Positions 6,582 through 21,672 of a stretch of 21,672 nt of DNA are shown here, in pieces. The first letter of the stretch is position 1. Each line of letters opens with the position of its first letter. The notes beneath the pieces are model-generated. The model made no database searches. It saw only the letters and a program-made list of their open reading frames with translations, and had not been told where the DNA came from. The translations under genes were made by a program, and so were the position numbers. Source of the stretch: a virus; the IMG/VR virus record IMGVR_UViG_3300032299_000136, positions 1 to 21,672 of that record; one strand, written 5' to 3'.

Positions 6582-7691
6582 ATGACTTCACCTACCGCAC
6601 TTCTTGGCCTTGCGCTGCCCGTACAGGGCGACCTGTCTGGTACATGGGGCGATACTGTTAACGACTCCATTACATCTTTGTTAGATTCGGCTGTTGCCGG
6701 TGTAACTACGCTCAGTACCGATGCAGATGTCACGCTGACCACAACCGACTATGTAGCTAACCAAGCACGACAAGCCATTATTCGGTGGACGGCCAGTAAT
6801 GGCGCTACAACTAGAAACGTTACAGCCCCCGCAAAAAGCAAAACGTACGTAGTCATCAATGCCGGTACAGGTTCTATTGTGTTTCGTGGCGCTGGGCCAA
6901 CGGCTGGCGTAACGATTGTTTCTGGAGAGAAATGCGTTGTTGCTTGGAGCGATACAGACTTTGTAAAAGTAGCGTCTTCTACCGGGGGTGTAACTTCTGT
7001 AAGCGTTGTTTCAGCTAATGGCTTTGCAGGTACGGTGGCAACATCTACAACTACCCCGGCCATCACGGTTTCTACAAGTATCACAGGTGTGCTGAAAGGT
7101 AACGGGACTGCAATCTCAGCAGCCACTGCGGGTACGGATTATTTAGCACCCCCATCTGGTACAGCTATCCTAAAAGCTAACTCTGGCGGCGCACTTGCAA
7201 ACGCTACTGCGGGTACGGACTATCTAGCCCCTCCATCTGGTACAGCCATTTTAAAAGCTAACTCTGGCGGCGCACTTGCAAACGCTACTGCGGGTACGGA
7301 CTATGTGGCTCCGGGCGGCGCTCTTGGCACTCCTTCACAAGGCGTATTGTCTTCATGCACAGTAGATGGCACAAACGCGGTTGGTTTTAGAAGTATCCCA
7401 CCTGTTGGTACAAAAACAAGTTCGTATACGCTTACAACTGGAGATGTTGGTAAATACGTGCAGGTCAGTACAGGCGGCTCTATTGTAATTCCCACTTCTA
7501 CTTTTGCTGAAGGTAACGCGATTAGCATCTTTAACAACACTTCTGGCAACATCACAATTAGTTGCAACCCTACTACTTACATTGCTGGCACTAATGGCTC
7601 TAACGCAACACTTGCTTTGGCCACCCGAGGCGTAGCAACCATCTTGTTTATCAGCAGCACAGTCTGCGTTGTCTCAGGGAACGTATCGTGA
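6582..7691 (+). CDS. Tail fibre protein with tandem 27-residue repeats
   Basis: The 369-residue product starts with MTSPTALLGLALPVQGDLSG followed by TWGDTVNDSITSLLDSAVAG, an N-terminal fibre domain that I recognise from many aquatic phage fibre genes. A beta-rich domain (about 60-135) with TYVVINAGTGSIVF follows. The middle carries ITGVLKGNGTAISAATAGT and two near-identical copies of a 27-residue unit (182-208 and 209-235) plus a third start. The C-terminal domain (about 260-369) has SSYTLTTGDVGKYVQV and FAEGNAISIFNNTSGNITI, a pattern also common in fibre tips. GGAG at 6573-6576 precedes the ATG. Its TGA overlaps the GTG of the next gene. The role is probably a second fibre or a partner of the 1050-residue fibre. 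Confidence 0.85.
   Translation: MTSPTALLGLALPVQGDLSGTWGDTVNDSITSLLDSAVAGVTTLSTDADVTLTTTDYVANQARQAIIRWTASNGATTRNVTAPAKSKTYVVINAGTGSIVFRGAGPTAGVTIVSGEKCVVAWSDTDFVKVASSTGGVTSVSVVSANGFAGTVATSTTTPAITVSTSITGVLKGNGTAISAATAGTDYLAPPSGTAILKANSGGALANATAGTDYLAPPSGTAILKANSGGALANATAGTDYVAPGGALGTPSQGVLSSCTVDGTNAVGFRSIPPVGTKTSSYTLTTGDVGKYVQVSTGGSIVIPTSTFAEGNAISIFNNTSGNITISCNPTTYIAGTNGSNATLALATRGVATILFISSTVCVVSGNVS
7125..7306 (+). repeat. 81-bp in-frame tandem repeat (two full copies plus partial)
   Basis: Units begin at 7125, 7206 and 7287 with ACTGCGGGTACGGA, exactly 81 bases apart. The first two are nearly identical along their whole length, with differences mostly at third codon positions. The third stops after about 20 bases. 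Each unit encodes T-AGTDYLAPPSGTAIL-KANSGGALANA. The high DNA identity points to a recent duplication or continuing exchange between copies, and copy number could vary between related phages. Confidence 0.92.
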
Positions 7692-8563
7692 GCGGTATCC
7701 AAATGCTGCTAGGTATAAAACCTAGAGTTACTGGGCTAACGTCTGTCCAATACATTGTGGTTGCTGGCGGTGGCAGTGGTGGTACAGGTGATAACAACAC
7801 TGGCGGAGGCGGCGGCGGTGCAGGAGGGTATAGAACCGGCAGTTCACTTGCTGTTACAACAGGTAATTCTTACAATGTAACTGTTGGCGGGGGCGGTGAT
7901 GCGGCTAGTAGTGGTAGCCCTTCCAGTTTTGCGGCAATAACTACTATTTCGGCCACAGGAGGCGGTCGTGGCGGCGATCCCGGTAATGTAGGGCTAGGCG
8001 GTGGTTCTGGTGGGGGTGGCGGTGGACGTCAACAAGCCGCCGGGGGCGCTGGTAATACCGGCGGGTATTCTCCTGTTGAGGGTTATGCTGGCGGTGCTGG
8101 TGGTACTACCGGTGGAGTTGAATCTGCCGATAACGGCGGCGGCGGTGGTGGTGGTAACTCTAACAATGTTGGTGAAGCTGGTAGTGGCAGCGGAGGCGGT
8201 AGTGCAGCTAGCGGAACTCTAGGGTTTGATGGAAATAGGTATGCTGCTGGCGGTGGTGGTGGGGGCGGAGCTGGTGGCGCAGGTGGTTCTGGCAGTTCTT
8301 CTGCAAACTCCGGTGAAGGCGGTACAGGGTCTTCCGGCAATTATCAAGGTGCTAATGCTGGTGCTAACAGTGGCTCAGGAGGCGGCGGAAGTGCCGCAGG
8401 CTCTGGAAGCAACGTAGATGGTGGCACGGGCGGCTCGGGCGTAGTTGTTATTCGTTATGCAGACACATTCCCCGCAGCTACCACAACAGGTTCTCCAACA
8501 GTTACAGTTTCAGGCGGATTCCGCACATACCGTTTTACGGGTTCAGGTTCAATAGAATTTTGA
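7688..8563 (+). CDS. Glycine-rich tail adhesin A
   Basis: The GTG start overlaps the previous TGA (GTGA). The 291-residue product has a short unique N-terminus (residues 1-18), then VQYIVVAGGG at about 20, which opens a glycine-rich domain with many poly-G runs to about residue 250. A strand VVVIRYAD and a C-terminal cap follow (about 257-291: TTTGSPTVTV, GGFRTYRF, TGSGSIEF). The VxYxVVAGGG-GGAGGYRT opening is typical of the Gly_rich_2 type domain. By analogy with the polyglycine receptor-binding tip of phage S16 gp38, such sequences can pack as polyglycine II helices; applying this here is inference. Unlike adhesins B, C and D, it lacks the M-A-x-FPS docking segment, so it may attach elsewhere. 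Confidence 0.82.
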   Translation: MSGIQMLLGIKPRVTGLTSVQYIVVAGGGSGGTGDNNTGGGGGGAGGYRTGSSLAVTTGNSYNVTVGGGGDAASSGSPSSFAAITTISATGGGRGGDPGNVGLGGGSGGGGGGRQQAAGGAGNTGGYSPVEGYAGGAGGTTGGVESADNGGGGGGGNSNNVGEAGSGSGGGSAASGTLGFDGNRYAAGGGGGGGAGGAGGSGSSSANSGEGGTGSSGNYQGANAGANSGSGGGGSAAGSGSNVDGGTGGSGVVVIRYADTFPAATTTGSPTVTVSGGFRTYRFTGSGSIEF

Positions 8564-8571
8564 GGTAAATC

Positions 8572-8925
8572 ATGGCAGCACCAAATATCATCGCGCCAAC
8601 AACAATACTCGGTAAAACCGCTGTGTTGGCAATTACGACATCAGCTACGGCTATCGTCACTAACTCTGCCGCCAGCGGTAAGGTTCTTAAGATAGACCAA
8701 CTTCTAATTACCAACGTCAACGGCACTGCAAACGCAACCGTGAACGTGGATATTTTTAGAGCTTCGGTTGCGTACGATATTGCGTACCTAATGACCGTTC
8801 CGGCGGGTGCAACGCTTGATATTATTTCAAGCCGCATCTACTTGGAAGAAGGTGATGCCTTGCGTTTAACAGCCAGCATTAACAGCTACCTTGATGGCGT
8901 CTGCTCTTACGAGGACATTAGCTAA
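8572..8925 (+). CDS. Small beta-rich fibre-associated protein, function unknown
   Basis: The 117-residue protein has NIIAPTTILGKTAVLAITTSAT near its start, then VLKIDQLLITNVNGTANATV, AYLMTVPAGATLDIISSRIYL and a C-terminal EEGDALRLTASINSYLDGV with CSYEDIS. The layout looks like a compact jelly-roll or beta-sandwich. It resembles a small structural protein that I remember from cyanophage and other aquatic phage fibre loci. TGAGGT upstream combines the previous stop with a ribosome site, and TAATG couples it to adhesin B. Because it is interleaved between two glycine-rich adhesins, it may be a collar, adaptor or chaperone for them, which is inference. Confidence 0.8.
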   Translation: MAAPNIIAPTTILGKTAVLAITTSATAIVTNSAASGKVLKIDQLLITNVNGTANATVNVDIFRASVAYDIAYLMTVPAGATLDIISSRIYLEEGDALRLTASINSYLDGVCSYEDIS

Positions 8926-9797
8926 TGGCTCAATTCCCATCCACTTCGGGTGCATCAGACGTCTGGAACGTAACAGATGTCTACCGCGCTGTGGCTGGTG
9001 GGAATTGGCCTTTATCCCCGCCATCAACAGTTGAATACCTTGTTGTAGCCGGTGGTGGAGGTGGTGGTAATAGTAGTAACAATACCGGCGGGTCGGGAGC
9101 GGGGGGCGCTGGTGGGTATAGAACCGCGACTGGTTTTGCAGTATCAGCGGGTTCCGCAATTACGGTTACGGTTGGGGGTGGTGGTGCGGGGGCGGCTTCA
9201 CAGGGAAATTCTGGAACTAGCGGCATTGATTCTGTTTTTAGTTCTATTACATCTATTGGTGGCGGTGGTGGCGGTACGGGCCGAGGTAATGGTATTTCTG
9301 GTGGCTCTGGTGGTGGCGGCGGTTATCAACGATCTGGGGGTACAGGTACTGCTGGCCAAGGTAATGATGGCGGTACAGGTGCTGGCAGTAGTCCATTTAA
9401 CGGCGCAGGTGGAGGCGGCGCAGGCAGTGCCGGAAGTGGCGCTACTGCTGGCACTGGTTTGCAATCTTCTATTTCTGGCAGTGCTTTGTTTTATGCCGCT
9501 GGTGGCGGCGGGCAAGGTGCATCTGGAGGCTCTGGTATCGGGGGTGCTGGTGCCTCTGCAACAAACGTCAACGACGCTCAAAGTGCTTCACCTGCAAACC
9601 GAGGCTCTGGCGGTGGCGGCGGTGCAAATACTGACACAGGCTCAAAACCCGGAGGAAGTGGTAGCTCAGGTGTTGTAATTATTCGCTATGCAGACATATT
9701 TGCTGCGGCAGCTTCAACAACAGGTTCTCCTACAATAACGGTTGCAGGCGGTTATCGTATTTATCAGTGGACTGGCTCCGGCTCAATCACGTTCTAA
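8925..9797 (+). CDS. Glycine-rich tail adhesin B
   Basis: The start overlaps the previous stop (TAATG). The 290-residue product begins with a docking segment (MAQFPSTSGASDVWNVTDVY..GGNWP, residues 1-29) shared with adhesins C and D. VEYLVVAGGGGGG at residue 36 opens the glycine-rich core, which includes GGAGGYRTATGFAVS and SVFSSITSIGGGGGG. VVIIRYAD and the C-terminal cap (STTGSPTITVAGGYRIYQW, TGSGSITF) close the protein. There is no Fn3 domain. Core and cap are very like those of adhesin D at protein level, though the DNA has drifted at many silent sites, so the duplication is not recent. The likely role is a receptor-binding tip. Confidence 0.83.
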   Translation: MAQFPSTSGASDVWNVTDVYRAVAGGNWPLSPPSTVEYLVVAGGGGGGNSSNNTGGSGAGGAGGYRTATGFAVSAGSAITVTVGGGGAGAASQGNSGTSGIDSVFSSITSIGGGGGGTGRGNGISGGSGGGGGYQRSGGTGTAGQGNDGGTGAGSSPFNGAGGGGAGSAGSGATAGTGLQSSISGSALFYAAGGGGQGASGGSGIGGAGASATNVNDAQSASPANRGSGGGGGANTDTGSKPGGSGSSGVVIIRYADIFAAAASTTGSPTITVAGGYRIYQWTGSGSITF

Positions 9798-9799
9798 TC

Positions 9800-11017
9800 A
9801 TGGCAGACTTCCCATCCCCCTCAAGTGCTTATGGTCGTTGGAACCTAATGGATGTGCGCGACGCCATTATGGGCAGTAATTGGCCCTCACCTGCAACGGT
9901 GCCCGGTGCGCCTACGATTGGTACAGCTACCGCTGCAAATGCTTCAGCGTCTGTAACTTTCACAGCACCAGCTAGTGATGGTGGATCGCCTATTACTGGG
10001 TATCGTGTGACGTCTAGCCCCGGAGGTGTTACGGCAACAGGCTCTGCATCGCCCATCACAATTACTGGATTGACAAACGGCACTGCGTATACGTTTACTG
10101 TGGCCGCACAAAACCTTGTTGGGTATGGCGCAGAAAGCGCGGCATCAAACAGCGTAACACCTACGGCTGGACGAATCTTTAGTATTTCTCCCGCAGTTTC
10201 AGGCTTATCTAACTGGAATCTTGATTCAGATGGCGCGCTAAACCTTGGCTCTGGCGGTACATGGACTATTGTGCCTGCTTCAAGTTTCAACGTTTCTGCC
10301 AAAGTTTGGGGCGCTGGAGGCGGTGGTATGACTACTGCAGGTGGCCCTGCTGGAGCGGCTACTGGCACTATTGCTATGACTTCTGGAACTTCGTACCAGC
10401 TTATTGTTGGTACGGGTGGGCAAGGCACAACGGCTAGCCGTGCTGCTGCTGCGGGCGGCGCGGGTTCAGGTATTCAATTTACTTCTGGCTCTACACCGAT
10501 CATGGTTGGCGGTGGCGGCGGTGGTAATGCTGAAGGTGGGTCAGGTCGTTATGGCGGTGGCGGTGGCGGCTCTACTGGCGAAACTGCTCCCGGGGGTGGC
10601 GGTGGCGGCGGTACGCAAAGTGCTGCTGGTGCTGGTGGTAATGGTGGCCGTCGTACTGGCAACCCGGGTTCTGGGCGTAATGGTGGCGGCGGAAATACTG
10701 GGTCAGCATACACAACAGGCGGTACTGGATTTGGAACGGGCGGTGTTGGCACATTTAACGGCGGCGATGCTGGTTCTGGCGGCGGCGGTGCTGGTTACTT
10801 TGGTGGTGGTGAAGGTGGCGGTGACGCTGGTGGTTTTGGCGGTGGCGGCGGCTCTGGCTACGTTAATGGCTCAGTTGTCACATCTGGAACGTTGTATACG
10901 GGTGTAGCAGCTACCGGCACAGTAGGTAATTCAGGCGATGCCAATCGCGGCACTGCGGGTAATGGTGGCTCCGCAGGGGGCGGTAATGGGGTTACAGGAA
11001 GGATATATCTGTCGTGA
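9800..11017 (+). CDS. Fn3-containing glycine-rich tail adhesin C
   Basis: An ATG at 9767 is in frame, but the start at 9800 is chosen because it gives the conserved MADFPSPSSA...W...V docking segment and lies just after the previous stop. The 405-residue product has docking residues 1-29 and a fibronectin type III-like domain at 34-122 (PGAPTIG, ITGYRVTSSPGG, LTNGTAYTFTVAAQN, SNSVTP). A connecting segment follows, then a glycine-rich core from about 165 (KVWGAGGGG). The end differs from the other three adhesins: it lacks the TTGSPT...GSGSI cap and finishes with GYVNGSVV...GNGVTGRIYLS. This may be a replaced tip with a different receptor. The stop overlaps the oxygenase start (GTGA). Confidence 0.83.
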   Translation: MADFPSPSSAYGRWNLMDVRDAIMGSNWPSPATVPGAPTIGTATAANASASVTFTAPASDGGSPITGYRVTSSPGGVTATGSASPITITGLTNGTAYTFTVAAQNLVGYGAESAASNSVTPTAGRIFSISPAVSGLSNWNLDSDGALNLGSGGTWTIVPASSFNVSAKVWGAGGGGMTTAGGPAGAATGTIAMTSGTSYQLIVGTGGQGTTASRAAAAGGAGSGIQFTSGSTPIMVGGGGGGNAEGGSGRYGGGGGGSTGETAPGGGGGGGTQSAAGAGGNGGRRTGNPGSGRNGGGGNTGSAYTTGGTGFGTGGVGTFNGGDAGSGGGGAGYFGGGEGGGDAGGFGGGGGSGYVNGSVVTSGTLYTGVAATGTVGNSGDANRGTAGNGGSAGGGNGVTGRIYLS

Positions 11018-11589
11018 CCGCAAAATGTTCATACGTTTTCCCAGTGCCTATGTTAGAGCGAGACTCTGACGGATTAGTTACGCCAGAACTGATCGACTGC
11101 GCAAAACAAATATTAAACCAGCATGGTGATAATCCCTTCTATAGCCCATGTAAAAGCACTGTTCGCACATTTGGTACGGTTTTAGAACTGCCGGAGTTTG
11201 CACAACTTAAGAATTTTATTGTTGAGTGTGTTGCGACATATTGTGACTTTGCAAAGATTGACAAAAACAATTTGATGTTTAGCGGCTCTTGGCTAAACGA
11301 ATATCAAACTAACGGCTACCAAGACTTGCATACGCATGAAGATAGCGTGTTGTCTGGCTGTGTGTATCTCAAAGCCCACGGAGTTAAAGACTTTATTACC
11401 CAAGCACCTTGGCACTTCTTTCAGCCATCCTATCCAAAACATACAGAAATAACCACGCAAAACTGCCACAATCTTGAGTATGAGACTGTAACCGGCAGGT
11501 GTTTTATATTTCCAAGCCATCTAATGCACCGCACATTACCCACGGCTCAAGAGCGAATCAGCTTGTCTTTTAACGTTCGGTACGGTTAA
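11014..11589 (+). CDS. Putative 2OG-Fe(II) oxygenase
   Basis: The GTG start overlaps the preceding TGA and has AGGAAGG at 10996-11002. The 191-residue product resembles the phage 2OG-Fe(II) oxygenase group (2OG-FeII_Oxy_5-like): W93-L-N-E-Y, then L-H106-T-H108-E-D110 followed by SVLSGCVYL, and near the C-terminus GRCFIFPSHLMH172R with R181 in ERISLSFNVRYG. H108-x-D110 (or H106) plus H172 would bind iron, and R181 would bind 2-oxoglutarate. Such enzymes hydroxylate protein side chains, nucleobases or small molecules; the substrate here is unknown. Its composition lacks the G-richness of its neighbours, so it looks like an independent gene placed inside the adhesin array. Structural proteins of the phage itself or host surface components are possible targets. 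Confidence 0.72.
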   Translation: MTAKCSYVFPVPMLERDSDGLVTPELIDCAKQILNQHGDNPFYSPCKSTVRTFGTVLELPEFAQLKNFIVECVATYCDFAKIDKNNLMFSGSWLNEYQTNGYQDLHTHEDSVLSGCVYLKAHGVKDFITQAPWHFFQPSYPKHTEITTQNCHNLEYETVTGRCFIFPSHLMHRTLPTAQERISLSFNVRYG

Positions 11590-11591
11590 AC

Positions 11592-12728
11592 ATGGCTCAG
11601 TTCCCATCTCAAACAAACGCAAACGGTCTATGGACTGTAAAGAAGGTTAAACGCTACCTTCAGGGGGCCAACTTCCCCACGTTCCCCGGAGCGCCCACGA
11701 TTGGCGCTGCAACAGGTGGAAACGCACAAGCAAGTGTGGCTTTTACCGCACCTGCTTCCACAGGCGGCTCAGCGATTACAAGCTATACAGTTACGTCCTC
11801 CCCCGGTGGTATTACAGCTACAGGTTCTTCTTCTCCTATCACTGTCACCGGTTTAACTAACGGCACGGCATACACATTTACTGTTAGGGCGACAACGTTT
11901 ACAACAGGCCCTGCAAGTGGATCGTCTAACAGCGTTACCCCTGTTGCTGCGCTTTCTGCGGTCGAATACTTGGTTGTAGCTGGTGGGGGCGGTGGTGGTG
12001 GACACTATGGTGCGGGTGGGGGTGCAGGTGGGTACAGAACTGCGACTGGTTTTGCTGTTTCAACGGGCGTTTCTTACACCGTAACGATTGGCTCAGGTGG
12101 CAGTGGATTGGGTAGTCCGGGTCAAGGCGGTAGCGGTAATAATTCGGTGTTTTCATCTATCACCTCTATTGGCGGCGGTGGCGGCGGCTCCCGCGATAGT
12201 GGAATTGCGGGTCTACCGGGCGGTTCTGGTGGCGGTGGCGGTGGTGGTGGTGGCTCTGTTGGCGGCGCAGGGACTGCGGGCCAAGGAAATAATGGTGGGG
12301 TTGGTATAAACGATGGCGGTAATTCCCGTGGCGGTGGCGGCGGTGGAGCCAGTCAAGTTGGCAATACTAACGGCGCTGGTTATGGCGGCAACGGTTCCAC
12401 AGCTTTTGATGGCATTACGTATGCTGGCGGTGGCGGCGGCGGTAGTCAAAGTGCTGGTGGTAGACCGGGCGGCAGTGGCGGCGGGGGCGGAGGCGGCTCT
12501 GGAGGTGGAAACGGCACGGCTGGCGGGGGAAATACTGGTGGTGGCGGTGGCGGTGGCGCACAAACTGAAGATGGATCAAATAGCGGTAGTGGCGGTTCGG
12601 GCATAGTGATTGTTCGCTACTCCGATGTTTTTTCAGCCGCCGCATCCACAACAGGCTCTCCTACAATTACTGTGTCCGGAGGCTATCGTACATATAAATG
12701 GACAGGTTCTGGTTCAATTACTTTCTAA
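11592..12728 (+). CDS. Fn3-containing glycine-rich tail adhesin D
   Basis: The ATG lies two bases after the oxygenase stop. The 378-residue product carries every module of the set. The docking segment is 1-29 (MAQFPSQTNANGLWTVKKVK). The Fn3-like domain is 31-118 (PGAPTIG, TSYTVTSSPGG, LTNGTAYTFTVRA, SNSVTP). The glycine-rich core starts at about 124 (VEYLVVAGGGGGGG) and includes GYRTATGFAVSTG and SVFSSITSIGGGGGG. The C-terminal cap is about 343-378 (STTGSPTITVSGGYRTYKW, TGSGSITF). It therefore looks like adhesin C at its front and adhesin B at its back, which fits modular shuffling. A receptor-binding tip is the likely role. Confidence 0.84.
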   Translation: MAQFPSQTNANGLWTVKKVKRYLQGANFPTFPGAPTIGAATGGNAQASVAFTAPASTGGSAITSYTVTSSPGGITATGSSSPITVTGLTNGTAYTFTVRATTFTTGPASGSSNSVTPVAALSAVEYLVVAGGGGGGGHYGAGGGAGGYRTATGFAVSTGVSYTVTIGSGGSGLGSPGQGGSGNNSVFSSITSIGGGGGGSRDSGIAGLPGGSGGGGGGGGGSVGGAGTAGQGNNGGVGINDGGNSRGGGGGGASQVGNTNGAGYGGNGSTAFDGITYAGGGGGGSQSAGGRPGGSGGGGGGGSGGGNGTAGGGNTGGGGGGGAQTEDGSNSGSGGSGIVIVRYSDVFSAAASTTGSPTITVSGGYRTYKWTGSGSITF

Positions 12729-14164: not shown

Positions 14165-16042
14165 ATGCCGCTTAAAAAACTTACCCTGAAAGCTGGTGTA
14201 AACCAAGAAAACACCCGCTATACCAACGAGAACGGTTGGTACATATCCGACAAGATGCGGTTTCGTCAAGGTACGCCTGAAAAGATTGGCGGCTGGCAGC
14301 GCATTTCTGCAAGTACTTTTTTAGGTGTTTGTCGTTCTTTGTGGAACTGGGTCACGTTGCAAAACTTCAATCTAATTGGAGTGGGTACCAACTTAAAGTT
14401 TTACATTGAAAAGGGTGGCGTGTATAACGATATCACACCTATTCGTTCGTCTTCTACCATTAACAACAATCCATTTTCTACAACCAATGCTTCCAGAGTT
14501 GTGACGGTTACGGATACTGCGCATGGTGGGGCAACTGGTGACTTTGTAACGTTTAGTGGTGCCTCGGCTGTTGGTGGGTTAACCTTAAACAACGAGTATC
14601 AGATAACGGTACTGACTGCCAATACATACACAATTACTGCAGCTACTGCAGCCACTTCTACAGCCACGGGTGGGGGTGCTTCTGTTGTAGCCGCATATCA
14701 AGTAAGCGTTGGTCCAGAAATTGAAGTGGCCTTGACCGGTTGGGGCGCAGGCGCATGGGGCGCAGGGACTTGGGGTGTTGGAACTCCATCCACAACTGAA
14801 ACTAATATTCGCATTTGGAGCCAACAAAATTTTGGTGAAGATTTAATCTTTGCCCCGGCGGGGGGTCAGCTTTACTATTGGGATGCAACCTCTGGTGTAA
14901 CAAGCCGTGGCGTTTTAGTTTCTAGTTTGGCCGGTGCTTCAGATGTTCCGACTGTCCAAAACTTTATTTTTGTATCTGATACCAGCCGATTTGTGTTTGC
15001 TTTTGGTACCAATGAACCCGGCAGTGCCGTGCAAGACCCTATGCTTGTTCGCTGGTCAGATCAAGAATCTGTAGTTAATTGGACGCCAGCTATTACCAAT
15101 CAAGCTAATAGCCTTAGACTTTCTCACGGTTCTAAAATTGTGACTTGTGTGCAGACTCGTCAAGAGATTGTGGTTTTTACTGATTCTTCTGTATATTCAT
15201 TTCAGTACCAAGGCCCACCGGCAATTTGGTCAAGTCAGCTTTTGGGCGACAACATTTCTATTTTTAGTCAAAACGCCGCAATCATTGCGTCAGGTGTTGT
15301 GTATTGGATGGGCGTAGACAAGTTCTATAAATACGACGGTCGTACTCAAACCCTACGTTGCGATCTGCGACAGCACATTTTTCAAAACATTAACTTAAGC
15401 CAAGCGGCTCAGGTATTTGCTGGAACCAATGAAGGTTTTAACGAAGTCTGGTGGTTCTATTGCTCAGCTAACAGCACCGTAATTGATAGCTACGTTATCT
15501 TTAACTACTTTGAAAACAATGGTGAAGGCGTGTGGTCCTATGGTACGCTGGGCCGTACAGCATGGCTTGACTCAGGGCTTCGCGATTACCCACTGGGTGC
15601 CACGTATACATATAACTTGGTCAACCACGAACTTGGTAACGACAATGCAGAAACAGCAACGCCTGTAGCAATTAATGCAATTATTGAGTCTGCTGAATTT
15701 GACATTGACGACGGAGATCACTTTGGGTTTGTTTGGAGAATTTTGCCAGACATTACATTCCGTGGGTCAGACACAGCTTCTCCGCAAGTTACTATGACGC
15801 TAATCCCAATGCAAAACTCAGGTTCTGGGTATAACGATCCCATCTCGTTAGGCGGCAATTCAAATGCAACTGTCACCCGTACATCGACGTCCGTTATTGA
15901 ACAGTTTACGGGTCAGGTTTACGTCAGGGTTCGTGGACGTCAAATGATTTTACAAGTTGAATCCAACCAACTGGGATGCGCATGGCAGCTTGGGTCGCCC
16001 CGTATTGATATTAAACAAGATGGCCGCAGAGGTAACTCATGA
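14165..16042 (+). CDS. Nozzle / DNA-stabilisation tail protein (P22 gp10-like)
   Basis: The 625-residue protein begins LTLKAGVNQENTRYTNENGW followed by YISDKMRFRQGTPEKIGGWQ, an N-terminal signature of phage tail hub (nozzle) proteins related to P22 gp10, which seal packaged DNA below the adaptor. Residues 104-176 are an inserted beta domain (TTNASRVVTVTDTAHG, GDFVTFSGASAVGGLTLNNE, NTYTITAATAATST) of a type often likened to the E1 FCCH domain. After that come the GWGAGAWGAGTWG repeat (about 192-204) and IWSQQNFGEDLIFAPAGGQL. A propeller-like body has VWWFYCSANSTVIDSYVIFN and WSYGTLGRTAW. A C-terminal beta domain follows. The stop overlaps the next gene by ATGA. The family call is good; the gp10 equivalence is less certain. 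Confidence 0.72.
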   Translation: MPLKKLTLKAGVNQENTRYTNENGWYISDKMRFRQGTPEKIGGWQRISASTFLGVCRSLWNWVTLQNFNLIGVGTNLKFYIEKGGVYNDITPIRSSSTINNNPFSTTNASRVVTVTDTAHGGATGDFVTFSGASAVGGLTLNNEYQITVLTANTYTITAATAATSTATGGGASVVAAYQVSVGPEIEVALTGWGAGAWGAGTWGVGTPSTTETNIRIWSQQNFGEDLIFAPAGGQLYYWDATSGVTSRGVLVSSLAGASDVPTVQNFIFVSDTSRFVFAFGTNEPGSAVQDPMLVRWSDQESVVNWTPAITNQANSLRLSHGSKIVTCVQTRQEIVVFTDSSVYSFQYQGPPAIWSSQLLGDNISIFSQNAAIIASGVVYWMGVDKFYKYDGRTQTLRCDLRQHIFQNINLSQAAQVFAGTNEGFNEVWWFYCSANSTVIDSYVIFNYFENNGEGVWSYGTLGRTAWLDSGLRDYPLGATYTYNLVNHELGNDNAETATPVAINAIIESAEFDIDDGDHFGFVWRILPDITFRGSDTASPQVTMTLIPMQNSGSGYNDPISLGGNSNATVTRTSTSVIEQFTGQVYVRVRGRQMILQVESNQLGCAWQLGSPRIDIKQDGRRGNS

Positions 16043-16380
16043 TTGTTACGTCTGAATACGAATTAAACCAAGTAGCTGCGCCTAACTTACCCTTGGCTCC
16101 AACGGAGTACCAGCGGCAATATACCGACCAGCTTAACGACATCTTGCGCCTGTACTTTAACAGGCTTGATTTTATTATTGCCCAATTAAGAACAGACAAT
16201 ATTATTCCTGCGTTAACTAATTACACTGTAGCCACGCTACCCAGCGCAGTCACGTCAGGTAGGGGTGCAAGGTCTTTTGTTACCGATGCCTTAGCGCCAA
16301 CGTTTGGGGCAACCGTTGTGACTGGCGGAGCAGTGGCTGTGCCTGTATATTCCGATGGAACAAATTGGAAAGTTGGATAA
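16039..16380 (+). CDS. Small protein with helical N-terminus and fibre-tip-like C-terminus
   Basis: The 113-residue protein has a helical N-terminal half (YQRQYTDQLNDILRLYFNRLDFIIAQL, about 24-50) with heptad-like hydrophobic spacing. Its second half (ATLPSAVTSGRGARSFVTDA, APTFGATV, then VPVYSDGTNWKVG) is a small module that I normally see at the C-terminus of phage fibres. The two parts suggest an oligomer that attaches to the nozzle or supports an ejection protein. ATGA couples it to the nozzle gene and TAATG to the following gene. The function is unknown. Confidence 0.8.
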   Translation: MIVTSEYELNQVAAPNLPLAPTEYQRQYTDQLNDILRLYFNRLDFIIAQLRTDNIIPALTNYTVATLPSAVTSGRGARSFVTDALAPTFGATVVTGGAVAVPVYSDGTNWKVG

Positions 16381-18974
16381 TGGCAGACCAAGCAATCATT
16401 AATAAATTAGCCAGTCAAATTCTAGGGCAAGGTCTTACCTCCCAATGGAAGGGTACAGGTCATGGTTCTGCTCAAAAGAACGCGGAAGACATGGCCAAGA
16501 TCATGGCCGACATCGGCATTACCGACATTAAGCAGTTTGGCAAGGTTACTAAAACTGTTGATGCCGCTGTTATTCCTCAGTATGAGCGCGTAGTTCTAGG
16601 TTACGACCAAGAGGGCAATCAAATTGTTAAAGATAATATTATTGGCTATACCGATCAAAACGGAAATACTGTTGACGCAAGCTTGGTTAAATCTGAGAGT
16701 GTTTTTTCTGGCGGTGAGGGCGGCGTTTATGAAACTGTCTACACAGCTCCTGTAGGTAAACAAGAAGTATTTGGTAACAAACTTACTGGGCAAGAAGTTG
16801 CCAACACATACGGCGAACGTCAGACAGGCAATGCCTTTGGCGGCACCTTTGCTGGATCGGGAAACACTGGCTACCGCGTTCAGTTTACGCCTGACGGAAC
16901 GCCCATCTTTTACACAACGTACGCAACGTCTAACGATCTTGCCATGCTTTTGCAAGACCTTGGCCCAATCGGTCAGATTGGTTTGGCACTTGCTACAGGC
17001 GGTTTGACTATTCCCCAACAGATTGCCGCGCAGATGGCAGTTCAAGTTTTGAGTGGCGCGGAACTGAAAGATGTAGTTACAAATGCGGCGATCAGTTTTG
17101 CTGGGTCACAAATCCCCGGCATGGATTTCATGAAAGAAGGCGCTTCTTTTATTCAAGACCTTGGCCTATCAGAAACGGTTACAAAAACATTAGTCAATTC
17201 TTTTCAAAATGCTGCGGTTTCTGCAGGTACTGCTTTACTAAAAGGCGAAAATATTGTTGATGCCGCGCTTCGAGGCGGTGCCACCGGTGGTGTAAACGGC
17301 GCTGTTAACGCAATTTTAGGTAACATTGACTTATTTGGCGATCTGAGTAAGACCCAAAAGAAACTGATTACCAATGCTGTTACAGGAGTTTTGTCTGGTA
17401 AAACGCTTAACCAAGTTGCAATTAATACCGCTGTCGCTGCCGCAAACGCTGAAATTGCGCAGCAAAGAAAACTTAACGCTCCGTTAGACGCAAAAGCAAT
17501 TTCCGAATTGACACCCGAAGAAAAGGCTATATACGACGAATACGGAACAAAGGGCCTCAAATATACATCAGACATCAACAGATTATTAGCCGGTATTGAT
17601 TCTGGGTCTAGTGAAAATACGGACAGCGGCCTGAGCAATCAAGACATCTTGGACATGATTTACGGTGGAACTGACGCCGGTGGCAACATTACAGATACCA
17701 CGGGTCTGGATACGGGGGAAACTATCCCCGATGGCACTGATACCACTGGCTTGGACGAAGGGCCGATAATCCCCGGCGGCACTGAAACGGTAACTATTAC
17801 TGATGGTAAAGACGGTACCATCGCAACCGACGTCATCACAAAAAGTACTGATCTTGGCAACGTTAATGTTACCGCTTGCGGCGAGGGCAAAGTACGTAAC
17901 GCTGCTGGTATATGCGTACCTATTGACTGTGGCGACGGAAAATACTGGGACCCGGTTACAAAGCAGTGTGAGCTAAAGAAAGTCGAGACTGTTGATATAA
18001 CTGACAAGACAGACAAAACTGATCTTGGCACCGTTACTGTCACCGCCTGCGGACCCGGAAAAGTACGTAATGCTGCCGGTATATGCGTAGATATTGATTG
18101 TGGCGAAGGTAAATATTGGGATGCAACTACCAACAAATGTGAGCTAAAGAAGGTTGATGAAGAAGTCAAAACCACACTCACATGCGGAGCCAATGAGGAA
18201 AAAAGTCCTGATGGGCTAAGTTGTTTACCTAAGTGCGGTCCGGGATACAAACGGGGTCCTGACGGCATTACCTGCGTTAAAGACGATGAGATCGTAATCA
18301 CAGCTTGTCCAAGTGGCCAAGAGCGAAATGCTGCGGGTAAATGCGTACCTATTAATTGTGGCGACGGCAAGTATTGGGACCCGATTACCGAACAATGCGA
18401 AGTCACAGAGGTTGAATGTGCCCCCGGATTTCATAAAGATGCTACTGGGCTGTGTGTAGCTGACGATGATGAGGGCTGTAAACCGGGTTTTGAGTCGGTT
18501 AACGGCAAATGTGTGCCGGTCTGCAAAGACGGGTATATACGCAACCTAGCAACAGGCGTGTGCGAACTAGCAACAAAAGAATGCCCAGCCGGACAAACAA
18601 GAAATGCCGAAGGTAAGTGCGTCCCAATTACCACGACAACTCCACCTGCAGGTTGCCCACCGGGTCAAACTAAAAATGCTGCGGGTGTGTGCGTTCCTAT
18701 TAAAACTACTACAACCCCAACTACACCGTCGTTTGTACCTACGGGGATTGCGGCAAGTACGGAAACCACAAGCCCTATTTATGCAGGCCCTATGGGTGAC
18801 TTTGATCTGTTTGCAACTTTGCCAGAACTCTTGGCTGACGATACGGACAAAGAGGATAAGAAAAAAACTACCCGGCAAACCCAACAAACTACTAAAATGG
18901 CTACCGGCGGGCACCTTGATGACCTGCTGGCGGAGCAGATGACAGTAGACGATCTGCTTAACTTATTACGCTAA
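16380..18974 (+). CDS. Probable internal virion (ejection) protein with cysteine-rich repeats
   Basis: The start at 16380 (TAATG with the previous stop) is preferred over the in-frame ATG at 16365. The 864-residue product has no recognised enzyme domain. Residues 1-190 are mixed, with AQKNAEDMAKIMADIGI and repeated GYDQ-GN/GYTDQNGN motifs. About 190-375 is a long alanine/glycine-rich helical stretch (GPIGQIGLALATGG..., NAAVSAGTALLKGE, VNGAVNAILGN), as in membrane-interacting ejection proteins. About 410-490 is a GTDTTGLD-rich linker. Residues 500-771 hold 26 cysteines in repeats of RNAAGxCVPI-CGxGKYWDPxTxxC type. The end, KMATGGHLDDLLAEQMTV followed by DDLLNLLR, is amphipathic. Its place after the nozzle supports a DNA-ejection role, but this is inference. 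Confidence 0.72.
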   Translation: MADQAIINKLASQILGQGLTSQWKGTGHGSAQKNAEDMAKIMADIGITDIKQFGKVTKTVDAAVIPQYERVVLGYDQEGNQIVKDNIIGYTDQNGNTVDASLVKSESVFSGGEGGVYETVYTAPVGKQEVFGNKLTGQEVANTYGERQTGNAFGGTFAGSGNTGYRVQFTPDGTPIFYTTYATSNDLAMLLQDLGPIGQIGLALATGGLTIPQQIAAQMAVQVLSGAELKDVVTNAAISFAGSQIPGMDFMKEGASFIQDLGLSETVTKTLVNSFQNAAVSAGTALLKGENIVDAALRGGATGGVNGAVNAILGNIDLFGDLSKTQKKLITNAVTGVLSGKTLNQVAINTAVAAANAEIAQQRKLNAPLDAKAISELTPEEKAIYDEYGTKGLKYTSDINRLLAGIDSGSSENTDSGLSNQDILDMIYGGTDAGGNITDTTGLDTGETIPDGTDTTGLDEGPIIPGGTETVTITDGKDGTIATDVITKSTDLGNVNVTACGEGKVRNAAGICVPIDCGDGKYWDPVTKQCELKKVETVDITDKTDKTDLGTVTVTACGPGKVRNAAGICVDIDCGEGKYWDATTNKCELKKVDEEVKTTLTCGANEEKSPDGLSCLPKCGPGYKRGPDGITCVKDDEIVITACPSGQERNAAGKCVPINCGDGKYWDPITEQCEVTEVECAPGFHKDATGLCVADDDEGCKPGFESVNGKCVPVCKDGYIRNLATGVCELATKECPAGQTRNAEGKCVPITTTTPPAGCPPGQTKNAAGVCVPIKTTTTPTTPSFVPTGIAASTETTSPIYAGPMGDFDLFATLPELLADDTDKEDKKKTTRQTQQTTKMATGGHLDDLLAEQMTVDDLLNLLR
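17850..18692 (+). repeat. Cysteine-rich repeat array in the ejection-protein gene
   Basis: A 132-bp unit occurs at 17850-17981 and 18021-18152, 171 bases apart. Both begin GATCTTGGCA and end with GAGCTAAAGAA; they encode VTACGxGKVRNAAGICVxID followed by CGxGKYWDxxTxxCELKK. A third, more diverged copy lies at about 18297-18405. Shorter C-P/A-G-[QF/YK]-x-[RNKA]-x-G-x-C units fill the rest. Cysteines pair within each unit with spacing of about 11-14 residues, like EGF or TNFR-type loops, though no standard EGF signature is met. Confidence 0.85.
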
Positions 18975-18986
18975 GGACTCAAGATG
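18972..18986 (+). promoter_or_regulatory. Stop codon fused to Shine-Dalgarno (TAAGGA-ATG)
   Basis: TAAGGACTCAAGATG joins the stop of the cysteine-rich gene, an AAGGA ribosome-binding site and the ATG at 18984. It differs from the site at 2132 in three bases and has the same length. Confidence 0.6.
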
Positions 18987-20951
18987 GCACTAATTACCGA
19001 AACAGTTTACAACCCGGATACGGATGAGGTTGAAACATATACCTACGAAGACGGCACTGTTAGCACCTTTGACTTTACCGGGGGCGGGTCCCAAGACTAT
19101 GATTTAACTTCGTCTGAAGCCCTTGCGGGGCAAGGTTTTTTGCAAGATGAGCTTGGCAATGCTTACAAGTTAGACGACTCTGGTAATTTAACTTTTAAAG
19201 ACAGTAAAGGCACTGACTTTACATACAACGCAGAAAAGGGCGGGTTTACAGACAAAGATGGAAACTTTGCTGGCGGTGACAATTCTCTACTTAGCTACGT
19301 AAAAAAATACGGTTCTAAAGCGCTTGATTTACTTAAAACAAACGGCAAATTTGACCCAGCAAAATTGTTAGTTGCTGGTATTGGCGCATATAAGCTTGCA
19401 ACTGACAAAGACGAGGGTGGCTACAATGTCCCCGTTCCTAAGTTGGATGCAGTTACACAACAGATTGACTATAACGACCCAAACCGCAGGCCCGGTTCTG
19501 CCGGACGCCAGTATACGACTGACCCGCGTTACGTAAAGCAAGGCGATGCTACAGCTTTAGCCGCAGCGCAAGCTGCCTCAGACGCACAGAAAGCCGGTAT
19601 CTTAGCCGCATATAAACCCGCAGCAGCACCCCCTGCGATTAATCCATACGCAGGCCAAATGGCTATGAAATACAACACACCTGCAACCGCTACAACTGGC
19701 GCAACCACAACTACAGCCTCTGCAGGGCTACCTGCTATACCAACTAACGAGCAGCTTATGGACCCCAACTATAAAATCAATTCAATTGGTATGGCTGATG
19801 GCGGTATTGCAATGGCTAAAGGTCGTTATCTAAACGGTGACACAGATGGCATGGCTGATAAGATTTCAACCACAATTGATGGCGACCAAGAGGCAGCACT
19901 AAGCCATGGTGAGTTCGTAATTCCTGCCGATGTCGTATCCCACTTAGGTAATGGCAATTCAGATGCTGGCGCTAAAAAACTGTATGCCATGATGGACCGC
20001 ATCCGTGAAGCTCGTACTGGCACAAAAGAACAGGGTAAAAAGATTAACCCCGACAAATTCCTTGCGGCAGCTTCAGGTGGTTTGGCTGCGGCTTATGCCG
20101 GTGGTGGCTCTGTGCAAAAGTTTCAAGAAGGCGGTATTCCACTTGATACGTCTAAGACGTCTACGCTGTCCCCTTGGGCTGGTGACTACGTTACCAATAT
20201 GCTGGGCAAAACCGAAGCTTTAACTAACGCCCCCATGCAGACTTATGGCGGTCCTTTGACGGCGGGCGCATCTAACTTGCAGCAGCAAGGTTTTGCTGGA
20301 CTTAGCGAGGTAACCAAAGGTGGGTTTAATCCCGCAACGTTTACTTCTGGCACGTTTGACGCAAGCGCCGCTAACAAATACATGAACCCCTATTTGCAGG
20401 CTTCTTTGAATCCTCAATTGGAAGAAGCTCGCCGTCAGTCTCAGATTACTCAGCAGCAGAATGCTGCCAAGATGACTCAAGCCGGTGCATTTGGTGGCTC
20501 ACGCCAAGCTATTCTTGATGCCGAAAACCAACGTGCTTTGGGGGCTAACTTAGCTAACATTACCGGCACTGGATACAACACCGCCTACGACAAAGCCATG
20601 GCTCAGTTTAATGCCGAGCAGGGTCGCGGTTTGGATACTCAGAAAGCCACTGAAGAATCACGTCGGTACAGCGCAGACTTTGGCCTTAAGTCTTTGGGTG
20701 ATTTAATGAAAGCCGGAGAAACCCAACGCGGCATTGAGGCTGAGGGTATTACCGCAGACAAACGTCAGTTCGAGGAACAGCAAGCTCGTCCTTACACTAA
20801 CTTAGAGTTCCAACGCAAAATGCTGACTGACCTGCCAATTGGGGCGTCAACAACATCGACAAACCAAGACACATTATCTAAAGTGCAGACAGACATTGCG
20901 GGCTTAGCATCGTTGTATCAAAAATTGGCTAACTTAGGCATTAAGCCGTAA
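18984..20951 (+). CDS. Probable internal virion protein (MADGG / HGEFVIPADVV / AGAFGGSR type)
   Basis: The 655-residue product starts with an acidic, tyrosine-rich region (TETVYNPDTDEVETYTYEDG). Around residue 270 is MADGGIAMAKGRYL, followed by GMADKISTTIDGDQEAALSH and GEFVIPADVVSHLGNGNSDA (H308), then MMDRIREARTGTKEQGKKIN. YAGGGSVQKFQEGG lies at 371-384. The last 250 residues are helical and glutamine-rich, with YMNPYLQASLNPQLEEARRQ, AKMTQAGAFGGSRQAILDAE (A500-R507 core) and repeated NxAYDKAMAQFN-type helices. Both signatures are ones I associate with large podovirus-like proteins from aquatic phages, often annotated as internal virion or hypothetical. No lysozyme or transglycosylase motif is visible. 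An ejection role is inferred from the neighbours. Confidence 0.75.
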   Translation: MALITETVYNPDTDEVETYTYEDGTVSTFDFTGGGSQDYDLTSSEALAGQGFLQDELGNAYKLDDSGNLTFKDSKGTDFTYNAEKGGFTDKDGNFAGGDNSLLSYVKKYGSKALDLLKTNGKFDPAKLLVAGIGAYKLATDKDEGGYNVPVPKLDAVTQQIDYNDPNRRPGSAGRQYTTDPRYVKQGDATALAAAQAASDAQKAGILAAYKPAAAPPAINPYAGQMAMKYNTPATATTGATTTTASAGLPAIPTNEQLMDPNYKINSIGMADGGIAMAKGRYLNGDTDGMADKISTTIDGDQEAALSHGEFVIPADVVSHLGNGNSDAGAKKLYAMMDRIREARTGTKEQGKKINPDKFLAAASGGLAAAYAGGGSVQKFQEGGIPLDTSKTSTLSPWAGDYVTNMLGKTEALTNAPMQTYGGPLTAGASNLQQQGFAGLSEVTKGGFNPATFTSGTFDASAANKYMNPYLQASLNPQLEEARRQSQITQQQNAAKMTQAGAFGGSRQAILDAENQRALGANLANITGTGYNTAYDKAMAQFNAEQGRGLDTQKATEESRRYSADFGLKSLGDLMKAGETQRGIEAEGITADKRQFEEQQARPYTNLEFQRKMLTDLPIGASTTSTNQDTLSKVQTDIAGLASLYQKLANLGIKP

Positions 20952-20964
20952 GTAAAGGTAAATC

Positions 20965-21672
20965 ATGAATCTCGTTAAAGCGCAAGAATACGCACAGTCA
21001 CTTCCACTGGCGGAACTAAAAAAGTACGCGGATGGTCTAAACCCATCCATGATTCCGCCATGGCTTGCCACAGGTGAAATACAAGCTAAGACTAAACGCG
21101 CTGAGATGGCTAACGCAATGCAAGGCGCGGCACAAGGAGAACAGCTTAGCGTAAAAGAACAAGTTGAGCAAAAGGCCGGACTGTTAGGACTTCAACAAGC
21201 GCAACAACGATCTCAAGCACAACAGATGATGCAGCCACGCCCTATGGCTGGCCCTGTACCTACGGGAACTCCACAACCCGAAGCACAACCACAACCTGCC
21301 GGACTTGACCAACTGCAGTCCAATATCAAGATGGCTGGTGGCGGTATCGTTGCGTTTGCTGCGGGAGACAAGGTTAAAGCTGGCCCCGAGTTTATTAAGT
21401 TCTTGCAAAGCATGGGTATTGATTACACAGATTTTGTAAAGTCTCCCGCCGCCGCGCAAGATAGTATTAAGGACATGTTTCGTTCCGTACAAGGCTCACA
21501 GCCAGCGGCACAAGCAGCGCCTACTCCACAGCCCGTTCAAGGTAACGCGTCTCCAAAAGCCTTTGCCGCAGGTCAAGCCATGCGCCCTGCAATAGCCGCA
21601 GCAAAGAATATAGCCAATATAGCCAAAACTAAAGCAATTCCCGGTGCTAACGTAGGTTTAGCGGCCTATCAA
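20965..21672 (+). CDS. Probable internal virion / ejection protein (3' partial)
   Basis: An ATG at 20965 opens a frame with no stop to the end of the window (236 residues seen). It is preceded by AAAGGTAAATC, the same GGTAAATCATG context as at 8564. The N-terminus MNLVKAQEYAQSLPLAELKK with DGLNPSMIPPWLATGEIQAK fits a family of large phage proteins that begin with a short helical PP-containing motif. A Q/P-rich linker follows (about 70-115), then KMAGGGIVAFAAGDKVK at M123, a signature also echoed in the two preceding proteins. The alanine-rich helical sequence at the edge (IAAAKNIANIAKTKA, GANVGLAAYQ) may be the start of a membrane-active region. In relatives I recall, such genes can be very long and may hold lytic or peptidase domains further on; here that part is missing. 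Confidence 0.8.
   Translation, partial: MNLVKAQEYAQSLPLAELKKYADGLNPSMIPPWLATGEIQAKTKRAEMANAMQGAAQGEQLSVKEQVEQKAGLLGLQQAQQRSQAQQMMQPRPMAGPVPTGTPQPEAQPQPAGLDQLQSNIKMAGGGIVAFAAGDKVKAGPEFIKFLQSMGIDYTDFVKSPAAAQDSIKDMFRSVQGSQPAAQAAPTPQPVQGNASPKAFAAGQAMRPAIAAAKNIANIAKTKAIPGANVGLAAYQ

What the first reader, a model, noticed from the sequence alone, without database searches (positions are those of the whole stretch)
17850..18692. 26-cysteine repeat domain in a putative ejection protein
Residues 500-771 hold 26 cysteines in recurring loops. Disulphide-rich EGF-like repeats are uncommon in phage internal proteins made in a reducing cytoplasm. If this protein is ejected into the periplasm, the cysteines could oxidise there and lock a structure across the envelope; alternatively they bind metal or the protein is not internal at all but a surface adhesin.
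Basis: partly seen in the sequence, partly recalled or inferred. Interest (0 to 1): 0.62.

Follow-up and report, generated by a model that had tools for sequence, protein, structure and literature searches.

The report
Swappable cysteine-hairpin arm in phage protein
A virus of bacteria, known only from environmental DNA, carries in a protein probably injected into the host a string of small two-cysteine loops, always in pairs, that close relatives lengthen, shorten or replace with cysteine-free repeats, so it looks like an exchangeable spacer arm.

Summary
The ORF at 16380-18974 (864 aa) has exactly 26 Cys, all in residues 500-771 (17877-18692), forming 13 units C-X10-12-C and none elsewhere. 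In 16 distinct related arrays (1 to 34 units) there are 410 Cys. All but two sit in such pairs, and those two lie at contig ends. AlphaFold2 gives one beta-hairpin per pair, with no fixed arrangement between units. The units resemble the last (C5-C6) loop of an EGF domain, but they are not EGF domains, and there is no CXC, CXXC or His pattern for metal. Pairs within a unit are therefore the likely disulphides (inferred; no chemistry was possible).

The array is not essential to the family. Most relatives, some nearly identical in the N-terminal half, carry Thr-Pro, Glu-Pro, Lys-Ala-Asp or Asn-Pro repeats in the same slot. Arrays occur in 10 of 10 complete proteins with the tail KMA[TS]GG-LD-LLAE...DDLL, and in 1 of about 21 complete proteins with other tails. 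Gene order (nozzle, needle, this gene, two large genes, a 2,059-aa LPD38/HExxH protein) makes an ejected or internal virion protein the best guess.

Best reading: a length-variable, locally cross-linked spacer arm of an ejection-block protein. Surface exposure is not excluded.

The parts
16380..18974 (+). ORF of the finding, 864 aa; no Sec signal-like N-terminus (MADQAIINKLASQILGQG...)
16380..16928 (+). N-terminal conserved domain (residues 1-183): two helices, then beta-rich
   Evidence: AlphaFold2 pLDDT about 90 over this part; conserved in 53 relatives; no PDB relative
16935..17459 (+). Gly/Ala/Leu-rich helical stretch (residues 186-360), the most hydrophobic part of the protein; candidate membrane-active region
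   Evidence: helices, low confidence; Kyte-Doolittle maximum 1.36 at 187-205; 15% Ala, 12% Gly, 12% Leu
17661..17876 (+). Thr/Gly/Asp-rich linker before the array (residues 428-499)
17877..18692 (+). Array of 13 two-Cys hairpin units (C-X10-12-C), residues 500-771, 26 Cys
18771..18971 (+). Conserved C-terminal tail SPIYAGPMGDFDLFATLPELL...KMATGGHLDDLLAEQMTVDDLLNLLR (residues 798-864)
14165..16042 (+). Upstream gene: nozzle/DNA-stabilisation-type tail protein (phrog_3287, E 2.3e-57); its homologues are annotated 'stabilization protein' in named phages
16039..16380 (+). Upstream small gene, tail-needle position (short form; some relatives carry a C1q/BclA-like knob here)
18984..20951 (+). Downstream gene, 655 aa, no Cys; ejection-block neighbour that co-segregates with the tail type
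20965..21672 (+). Next gene of the block, cut by the window end (about 668 aa in the 66-kb relative G001)

Best explanation
The gene encodes a virion protein of the ejection (internal protein) block of a short-tailed-type phage known from environmental sequence. It is built as N-terminal domain, hydrophobic helical stretch, exchangeable spacer arm, then a short conserved C-terminal tail. In this phage and about 15 sequenced relatives the arm is a chain of two-Cys beta-hairpins, each closed by its own disulphide once the protein leaves the reducing cytoplasm (in the released virion or in the periplasm of the next host). Because each Cys partners its neighbour 11-14 residues away, the chain stays linear. 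It can be lengthened or shortened by whole units, and should still pass a tail channel while resisting proteases better than the disordered repeats that occupy the same slot in other members. Shown: anatomy, pairing pattern, conservation, swapping and gene context. Inferred: disulphide formation, ejection, spacer function and threading.
For: Pairing: 408 of 410 Cys in 16 relatives lie in C-X10-13-C pairs, and the two exceptions are at contig ends. Fold: 26 strands = 13 hairpins, pLDDT 71, pTM 0.22. Selection: pN/pS 0.23. Slot swapping: L030 and L031 share a 95% identical nozzle gene and 88% identical DNA over the first 1.67 kb of this gene, then diverge, one into Thr-Pro repeats and the other into 9 Cys hairpins. 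The family tree needs at least 5-7 changes between array and no array. Linkage: arrays are tied to the KMA[TS]GG tail and to closely related downstream genes. Ejection context: nozzle, needle, this gene, two large genes, then a 2,059-aa protein with LPD38 (1.7e-27) and HExxH, then a strand switch. LPD38 is reported only from phage-type polyvalent proteins, thought to be injected with DNA (PMC5512222). In SU10 the nozzle is gp17, the needle gp18, and gp20-24 are the ejected proteins (PMC9509320). In the related phage DSL-LC04 the last gene of this block is annotated 'DNA transfer protein'.
Against: No proteomics or structure places the protein inside the head. Its N-terminal domain has no solved relative. 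Frequent swapping and extracellular-style repeats (Cys hairpins, GGxGND repeats in L006 and L114) would also suit a surface-exposed tail part. The AF2 model is of moderate confidence, from a shallow alignment, and Cys-Cys distances could not be measured.
Confidence: 0.5

Rival explanations
1. A surface-exposed tail-tip or needle-associated adhesin: the hairpin array projects from the virion and binds or penetrates host surface material, and its swapping reflects host-range change.
For: Extracellular-type repeats (cEGF and CBM_14-like; GGxGND in relatives). Rapid module exchange between close relatives. It sits right after the tail-needle gene.
Against: The neighbouring block is of ejection/polyvalent type. 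A Gly/Ala-rich hydrophobic helical stretch is conserved. A distant homologue of the N-terminal domain lies between portal and scaffold genes in MW202710. The array is replaced by low-complexity repeats with no obvious binding surface. No trimeric-fibre fold found.
Confidence: 0.27
2. Redox switch or envelope lock: the array is reduced in the virion and is oxidised by host DsbA on entering the periplasm, stiffening or anchoring an envelope-spanning conduit.
For: No signal peptide, so oxidation must come after leaving the cytoplasm. Precedent: delivered T6SS effectors need DsbA of the recipient cell (PMC5792426).
Against: Most family members have no Cys in this slot, so locking is not essential. 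Disulphides would be local and would not cross-link between units or subunits. Once released, virions also meet an oxidising environment.
Confidence: 0.12
3. Metal-binding (metallothionein or zinc-knuckle-like) domain.
For: 9% Cys in a compact region, even number of Cys.
Against: No CXC or CXXC, one His in 281 residues. Spacing between units varies widely, and single two-Cys units exist (L090), so there is no constant four-ligand site.
Confidence: 0.04
4. True EGF, peritrophin-A (CBM_14) or TIL domains captured from a eukaryote and acting as chitin or protein binders.
For: CBM_14 26.2 bits over cut-off on the isolated segment; cEGF, CBM_14 and TIL over cut-off in relatives.
Against: Matches cover about half of the CBM_14 profile and positions 5-20 of 24 of cEGF; units have 2 Cys, not 6. 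The whole-protein CBM_14 score is below cut-off. No PDB relative by sequence.
Confidence: 0.07

Closest known systems
C-terminal (C5-C6) loop of EGF / cEGF domains (Pfam PF12662)
   Same: C-x2-G-[YF]-x(n)-DG-x2-C hairpin with a bonded Cys pair at its ends; L042/L016 array hits cEGF at 1.8e-20 in ten stretches; Foldseek's best hits are EGF-rich receptors
   Different: Only one of the three EGF disulphide loops is present; units repeat alone; in the window itself cEGF does not reach E 1; Foldseek TM-scores are only 0.1-0.15
Ejection (internal virion) proteins of short-tailed phages: T7 gp14/15/16, P22 gp7/16/20, SU10 gp20-24
   Same: Gene position after nozzle and needle, hydrophobic helices, mosaic modular evolution (reviewed in PMC8954989)
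   Different: No sequence relation found; no Cys array is mentioned for ejection proteins in that review; location unproven
Phage polyvalent proteins (PMC5512222)
   Same: The last gene of the block in relative G001 has LPD38 and an HExxH motif
   Different: The Cys protein itself carries no known polyvalent domain
RTX / GGxGND repeats and Thr-Pro or Glu-Pro low-complexity arms of tail proteins
   Same: Occupy the same slot of the same family in other members
   Different: No cysteines, no hairpins

Membership tests
EGF-like domain | six Cys per domain, paired 1-3, 2-4, 5-6 | tested here: not met
   Units hold two Cys, with widely varying distances between units; no EGF family hit in the window
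EGF-like domain | C5-C6 hairpin C-x2-G-[YF]...G-x2-C | tested here: met
   Present in some units: 3 in the window, 2-12 in most larger arrays; cEGF profile in relatives
Peritrophin-A / CBM_14 | full six-Cys profile over cut-off | tested here: not met
   Only profile positions 25-48 of 53; whole protein 19.5 bits against a cut-off of 22.1; the isolated segment is over cut-off at 26.2 but still partial
Metallothionein / zinc knuckle | CXC or CXXC clusters, constant ligand sets | tested here: not met
   CXC 0, CXXC 0, one His in the array
Ejection (internal virion) protein | encoded beside nozzle and needle with large internal proteins | tested here: met
Ejection (internal virion) protein | present in virions, absent after DNA release | not testable with these tools
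   No isolate or proteomics of this phage
Ejection (internal virion) protein | sequence or fold relation to a proven ejection protein | tested here: not met
   PDB sequence and fold searches with the N-terminal domain found nothing significant; the only significant viral matches are uncultured phage proteins
Disulphide-bonded protein | Cys pairs bonded | not testable with these tools
   Inferred from invariant pairing and hairpin model

The most novel reading that the evidence does not exclude
A phage ejection protein carries a redox-responsive, unit-counted arm: reduced and flexible while packed and threaded through the tail, then oxidised in the host periplasm into a chain of disulphide-closed hairpins whose number sets the reach across the envelope. 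This would be the first Cys-hairpin spacer in a DNA-delivery machine.
Probability: 0.15. Interest if true: 0.8.

Novelty: new variant of a known kind. Interest (0 to 1): 0.52.

Why it matters
Proteins that phages push into cells must unfold, pass a narrow channel and work in an oxidising compartment. A protein class in which one slot is filled either by disordered repeats or by strictly paired Cys hairpins, with recent swaps between near-identical phages, is a natural experiment on what that slot does. It makes questions about redox chemistry and length control in phage DNA delivery directly testable, and warns against reading EGF or chitin-binding functions into such arrays from profile hits.

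Tried and rejected
Megablast of the whole window against named phages: no match. Relatives in bacterial genomes (prophages, host surface proteins): none for the N-terminal domain or for the array. The array against named phages: only weak matches, to Stenotrophomonas filamentous phages (E 0.02) and one other, not pursued. PDB sequence searches with array and N-terminal profiles: nothing. Foldseek of the N-terminal model: no PDB hit better than E 0.15, two uncultured phage proteins in BFVD. NCBIfam hits (GCG_CRPN prefix, CCPGW putative bacteriocin) rejected as short-motif resemblance. Thioredoxin not found in nine related records. The Erv1/Alr search is uninformative because its controls were also silent. 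Glutaredoxin occurs in three records, one without Cys in this slot, so it does not track the array. Literature searches found no description of Cys-hairpin arrays in phage virion proteins, but the library lacks many subscription papers. A metal-binding reading was rejected on spacing. Alignment searches failed on frame errors and were redone.

Full report
Observation. Translating 16380-18974 gives 864 residues with 26 Cys, every one between residues 500 and 771, that is 17877-18692. They form 13 successive units C-X10-12-C. Shuffling the residues of the region never paired more than 62% of the Cys, against 100% observed.

What the array is. I collected relatives from IMG/VR and read the whole ORFs. 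Sixteen distinct proteins carry the array: 26 Cys in the window; 24, 26 (cut), 8 (cut), 44, 42, 18, 9 (cut) and 2 in the first set; 68, 30, 50, 40, 15 (cut), 4 and 4 in the second. That is 410 Cys in all. Only two are unpaired, and both are the last Cys before the contig ends (L068, L113). Within a unit, Cys and the Gly after the first Cys are nearly constant while most other positions vary. Between the window and L026 the array has pN/pS about 0.23 and Cys codons differ synonymously, so it is a maintained protein feature.

Fold. AlphaFold2 on the array with 11 aligned segments gives 26 short strands, two per unit (13 hairpins), mean pLDDT 71 and pTM 0.22: local hairpins strung together without a fixed overall shape. 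Foldseek matches are EGF-rich receptors (LRP2/megalin, NELL) at E 1e-5 to 1e-4 with TM-scores of 0.1-0.15, then Pfs25 and TNF-receptor-type proteins, more weakly; this is resemblance of small loops, not shared architecture. Pfam gives partial CBM_14 for the window and cEGF, CBM_14 and TIL for relatives. From established knowledge of EGF (disulphides 1-3, 2-4, 5-6), the unit matches only the 5-6 loop. There is no CXC, no CXXC and a single His, so metal binding is unlikely.

The family and its exchangeable slot. The N-terminal part (residues 1 to about 400) is conserved in at least 274 IMG/VR stretches, but the region after it is not. Many members have Thr-Pro, Glu-Pro, Lys-Ala-Asp, Asn-Val-Asn-Pro or other repeats there and no Cys. 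On a quick maximum-likelihood tree of the N-terminal domain, array against no array needs at least 7 changes, at least 5 of them forced by well-supported branches (some rows are truncated and were left unlabelled). The clearest case is L030 and L031: nozzle genes 95% identical, this gene 88% identical in DNA over 1.67 kb, then no similarity. L030 continues into a Thr-Pro-rich arm, L031 into nine Cys hairpins. Conversely, L108, L109 and L114 keep array and tail with a different N-terminal part. Among complete proteins, all 10 distinct ones ending in KMA[TS]GG-[HY]LD-LLAE...DDLL have arrays; of about 21 with other endings only L090 has one, a single unit. Downstream genes split the same way: close relatives of the window's next gene follow the arrays, and more distant or split versions follow the other tails. 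Physical interaction of the tail with those products is my inference.

Where it acts. In the 66-kb relative G001 the late genes run in the order small and large structural genes, adaptor, fibres, lysis genes, nozzle-type protein, needle with a C1q-like knob, the Cys protein, 657 aa, 668 aa, 2,059 aa, then a strand switch. The 2,059-aa protein has LPD38 (E 1.7e-27) and an HExxH sequence; [quoted passage not shown] SU10 has the same logic: gp17 nozzle, gp18 needle, gp20-24 ejected (PMC9509320). In named relatives of the nozzle protein the same block ends in 'DNA transfer protein' (DSL-LC04) or very large proteins; none of the neighbouring proteins I checked there carries a Cys array. A distant relative of the N-terminal domain lies between portal and scaffold genes in MW202710. 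An ejection or internal protein is therefore the best guess, but no experiment places it.

Mechanism. I commit to a spacer arm: the slot tolerates unrelated repeat types and very different lengths, so its sequence matters less than being an extended linker between the N-terminal/hydrophobic part and the conserved tail. Nearest-neighbour disulphides would make that linker compact and protease-resistant without tying distant parts together, so it should still thread through a tail channel. Steps shown: anatomy, pairing, swapping, context. Steps inferred: oxidation, ejection, spacer function. Oxidation on arrival has a precedent in T6SS effectors that need recipient DsbA (PMC5792426). Against a general 'envelope lock' stands the absence of Cys in most members.

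Novelty. I found no description of such arrays in phage virion proteins in the searched library. Two-Cys EGF-like loops and modular ejection proteins are both known kinds; the combination, with strict pairing and module swapping, appears new. I rate it a new variant of a known kind.

Noticed in passing
window 18894-18971, 18984-20951, 20965-21672: A short motif MA-x-GG (KMATGGHL, GMADGGIAMAKG, IKMAGGGIVAFA) recurs in three consecutive virion-block products; it may be a common docking or processing signal.
   Followed up: partly
window 18984-20951; L040, L043, L077; L122:16132-18411; L125:12429-13313: A second shared module, DGE[FY]V[IF]-A--V---GNG...GA--L--M---IR, ends some members of the Cys-protein family and lies inside the neighbouring gene in others, suggesting modules shuffle between ejection-block proteins.
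   Followed up: partly
window 16039-16380; L030:4732-5397; L031:1777-2118: The needle-position gene swaps its C-terminal part between a C1q/BclA-like knob and a short form in phages with near-identical nozzle genes.
   Followed up: partly
L102:12175-18354 (minus strand): 2,059-aa protein with LPD38 and an HELGH (zincin-like) motif at the end of the ejection block: probable polyvalent protein.
   Followed up: partly
window 11014-11589: 2OG-Fe(II) oxygenase gene among fibre genes (phrog_81, 2.2e-28), kept at a similar place in related phages (L122, L123); its substrate could be a virion protein.
   Followed up: no
window 7688-8563, 8925-9797, 11592-12728: Three paralogous genes matching phrog_2295 (the first also Pfam Gly_rich_2), probably variable fibre parts.
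   Followed up: no
window 14165-16042, residues 112-171: Nozzle-type protein carries an inserted stretch resembling the ubiquitin-activating-enzyme E1_FCCH domain (5.5e-6, just below Pfam's cut-off).
   Followed up: no
L006, L070, L114: GGxGND (RTX-like, calcium-type) repeats lie next to or between Cys hairpins in some relatives.
   Followed up: partly
window 7125-7304: 81-bp near-perfect tandem repeat (2.2 copies) inside the ORF at 6582-7691.
   Followed up: no
G001:C1:20706-20885, G005:C1:16071-16250, G010:C1:31541-31723: Glutaredoxin genes in three related phage records, not correlated with the Cys array.
   Followed up: yes
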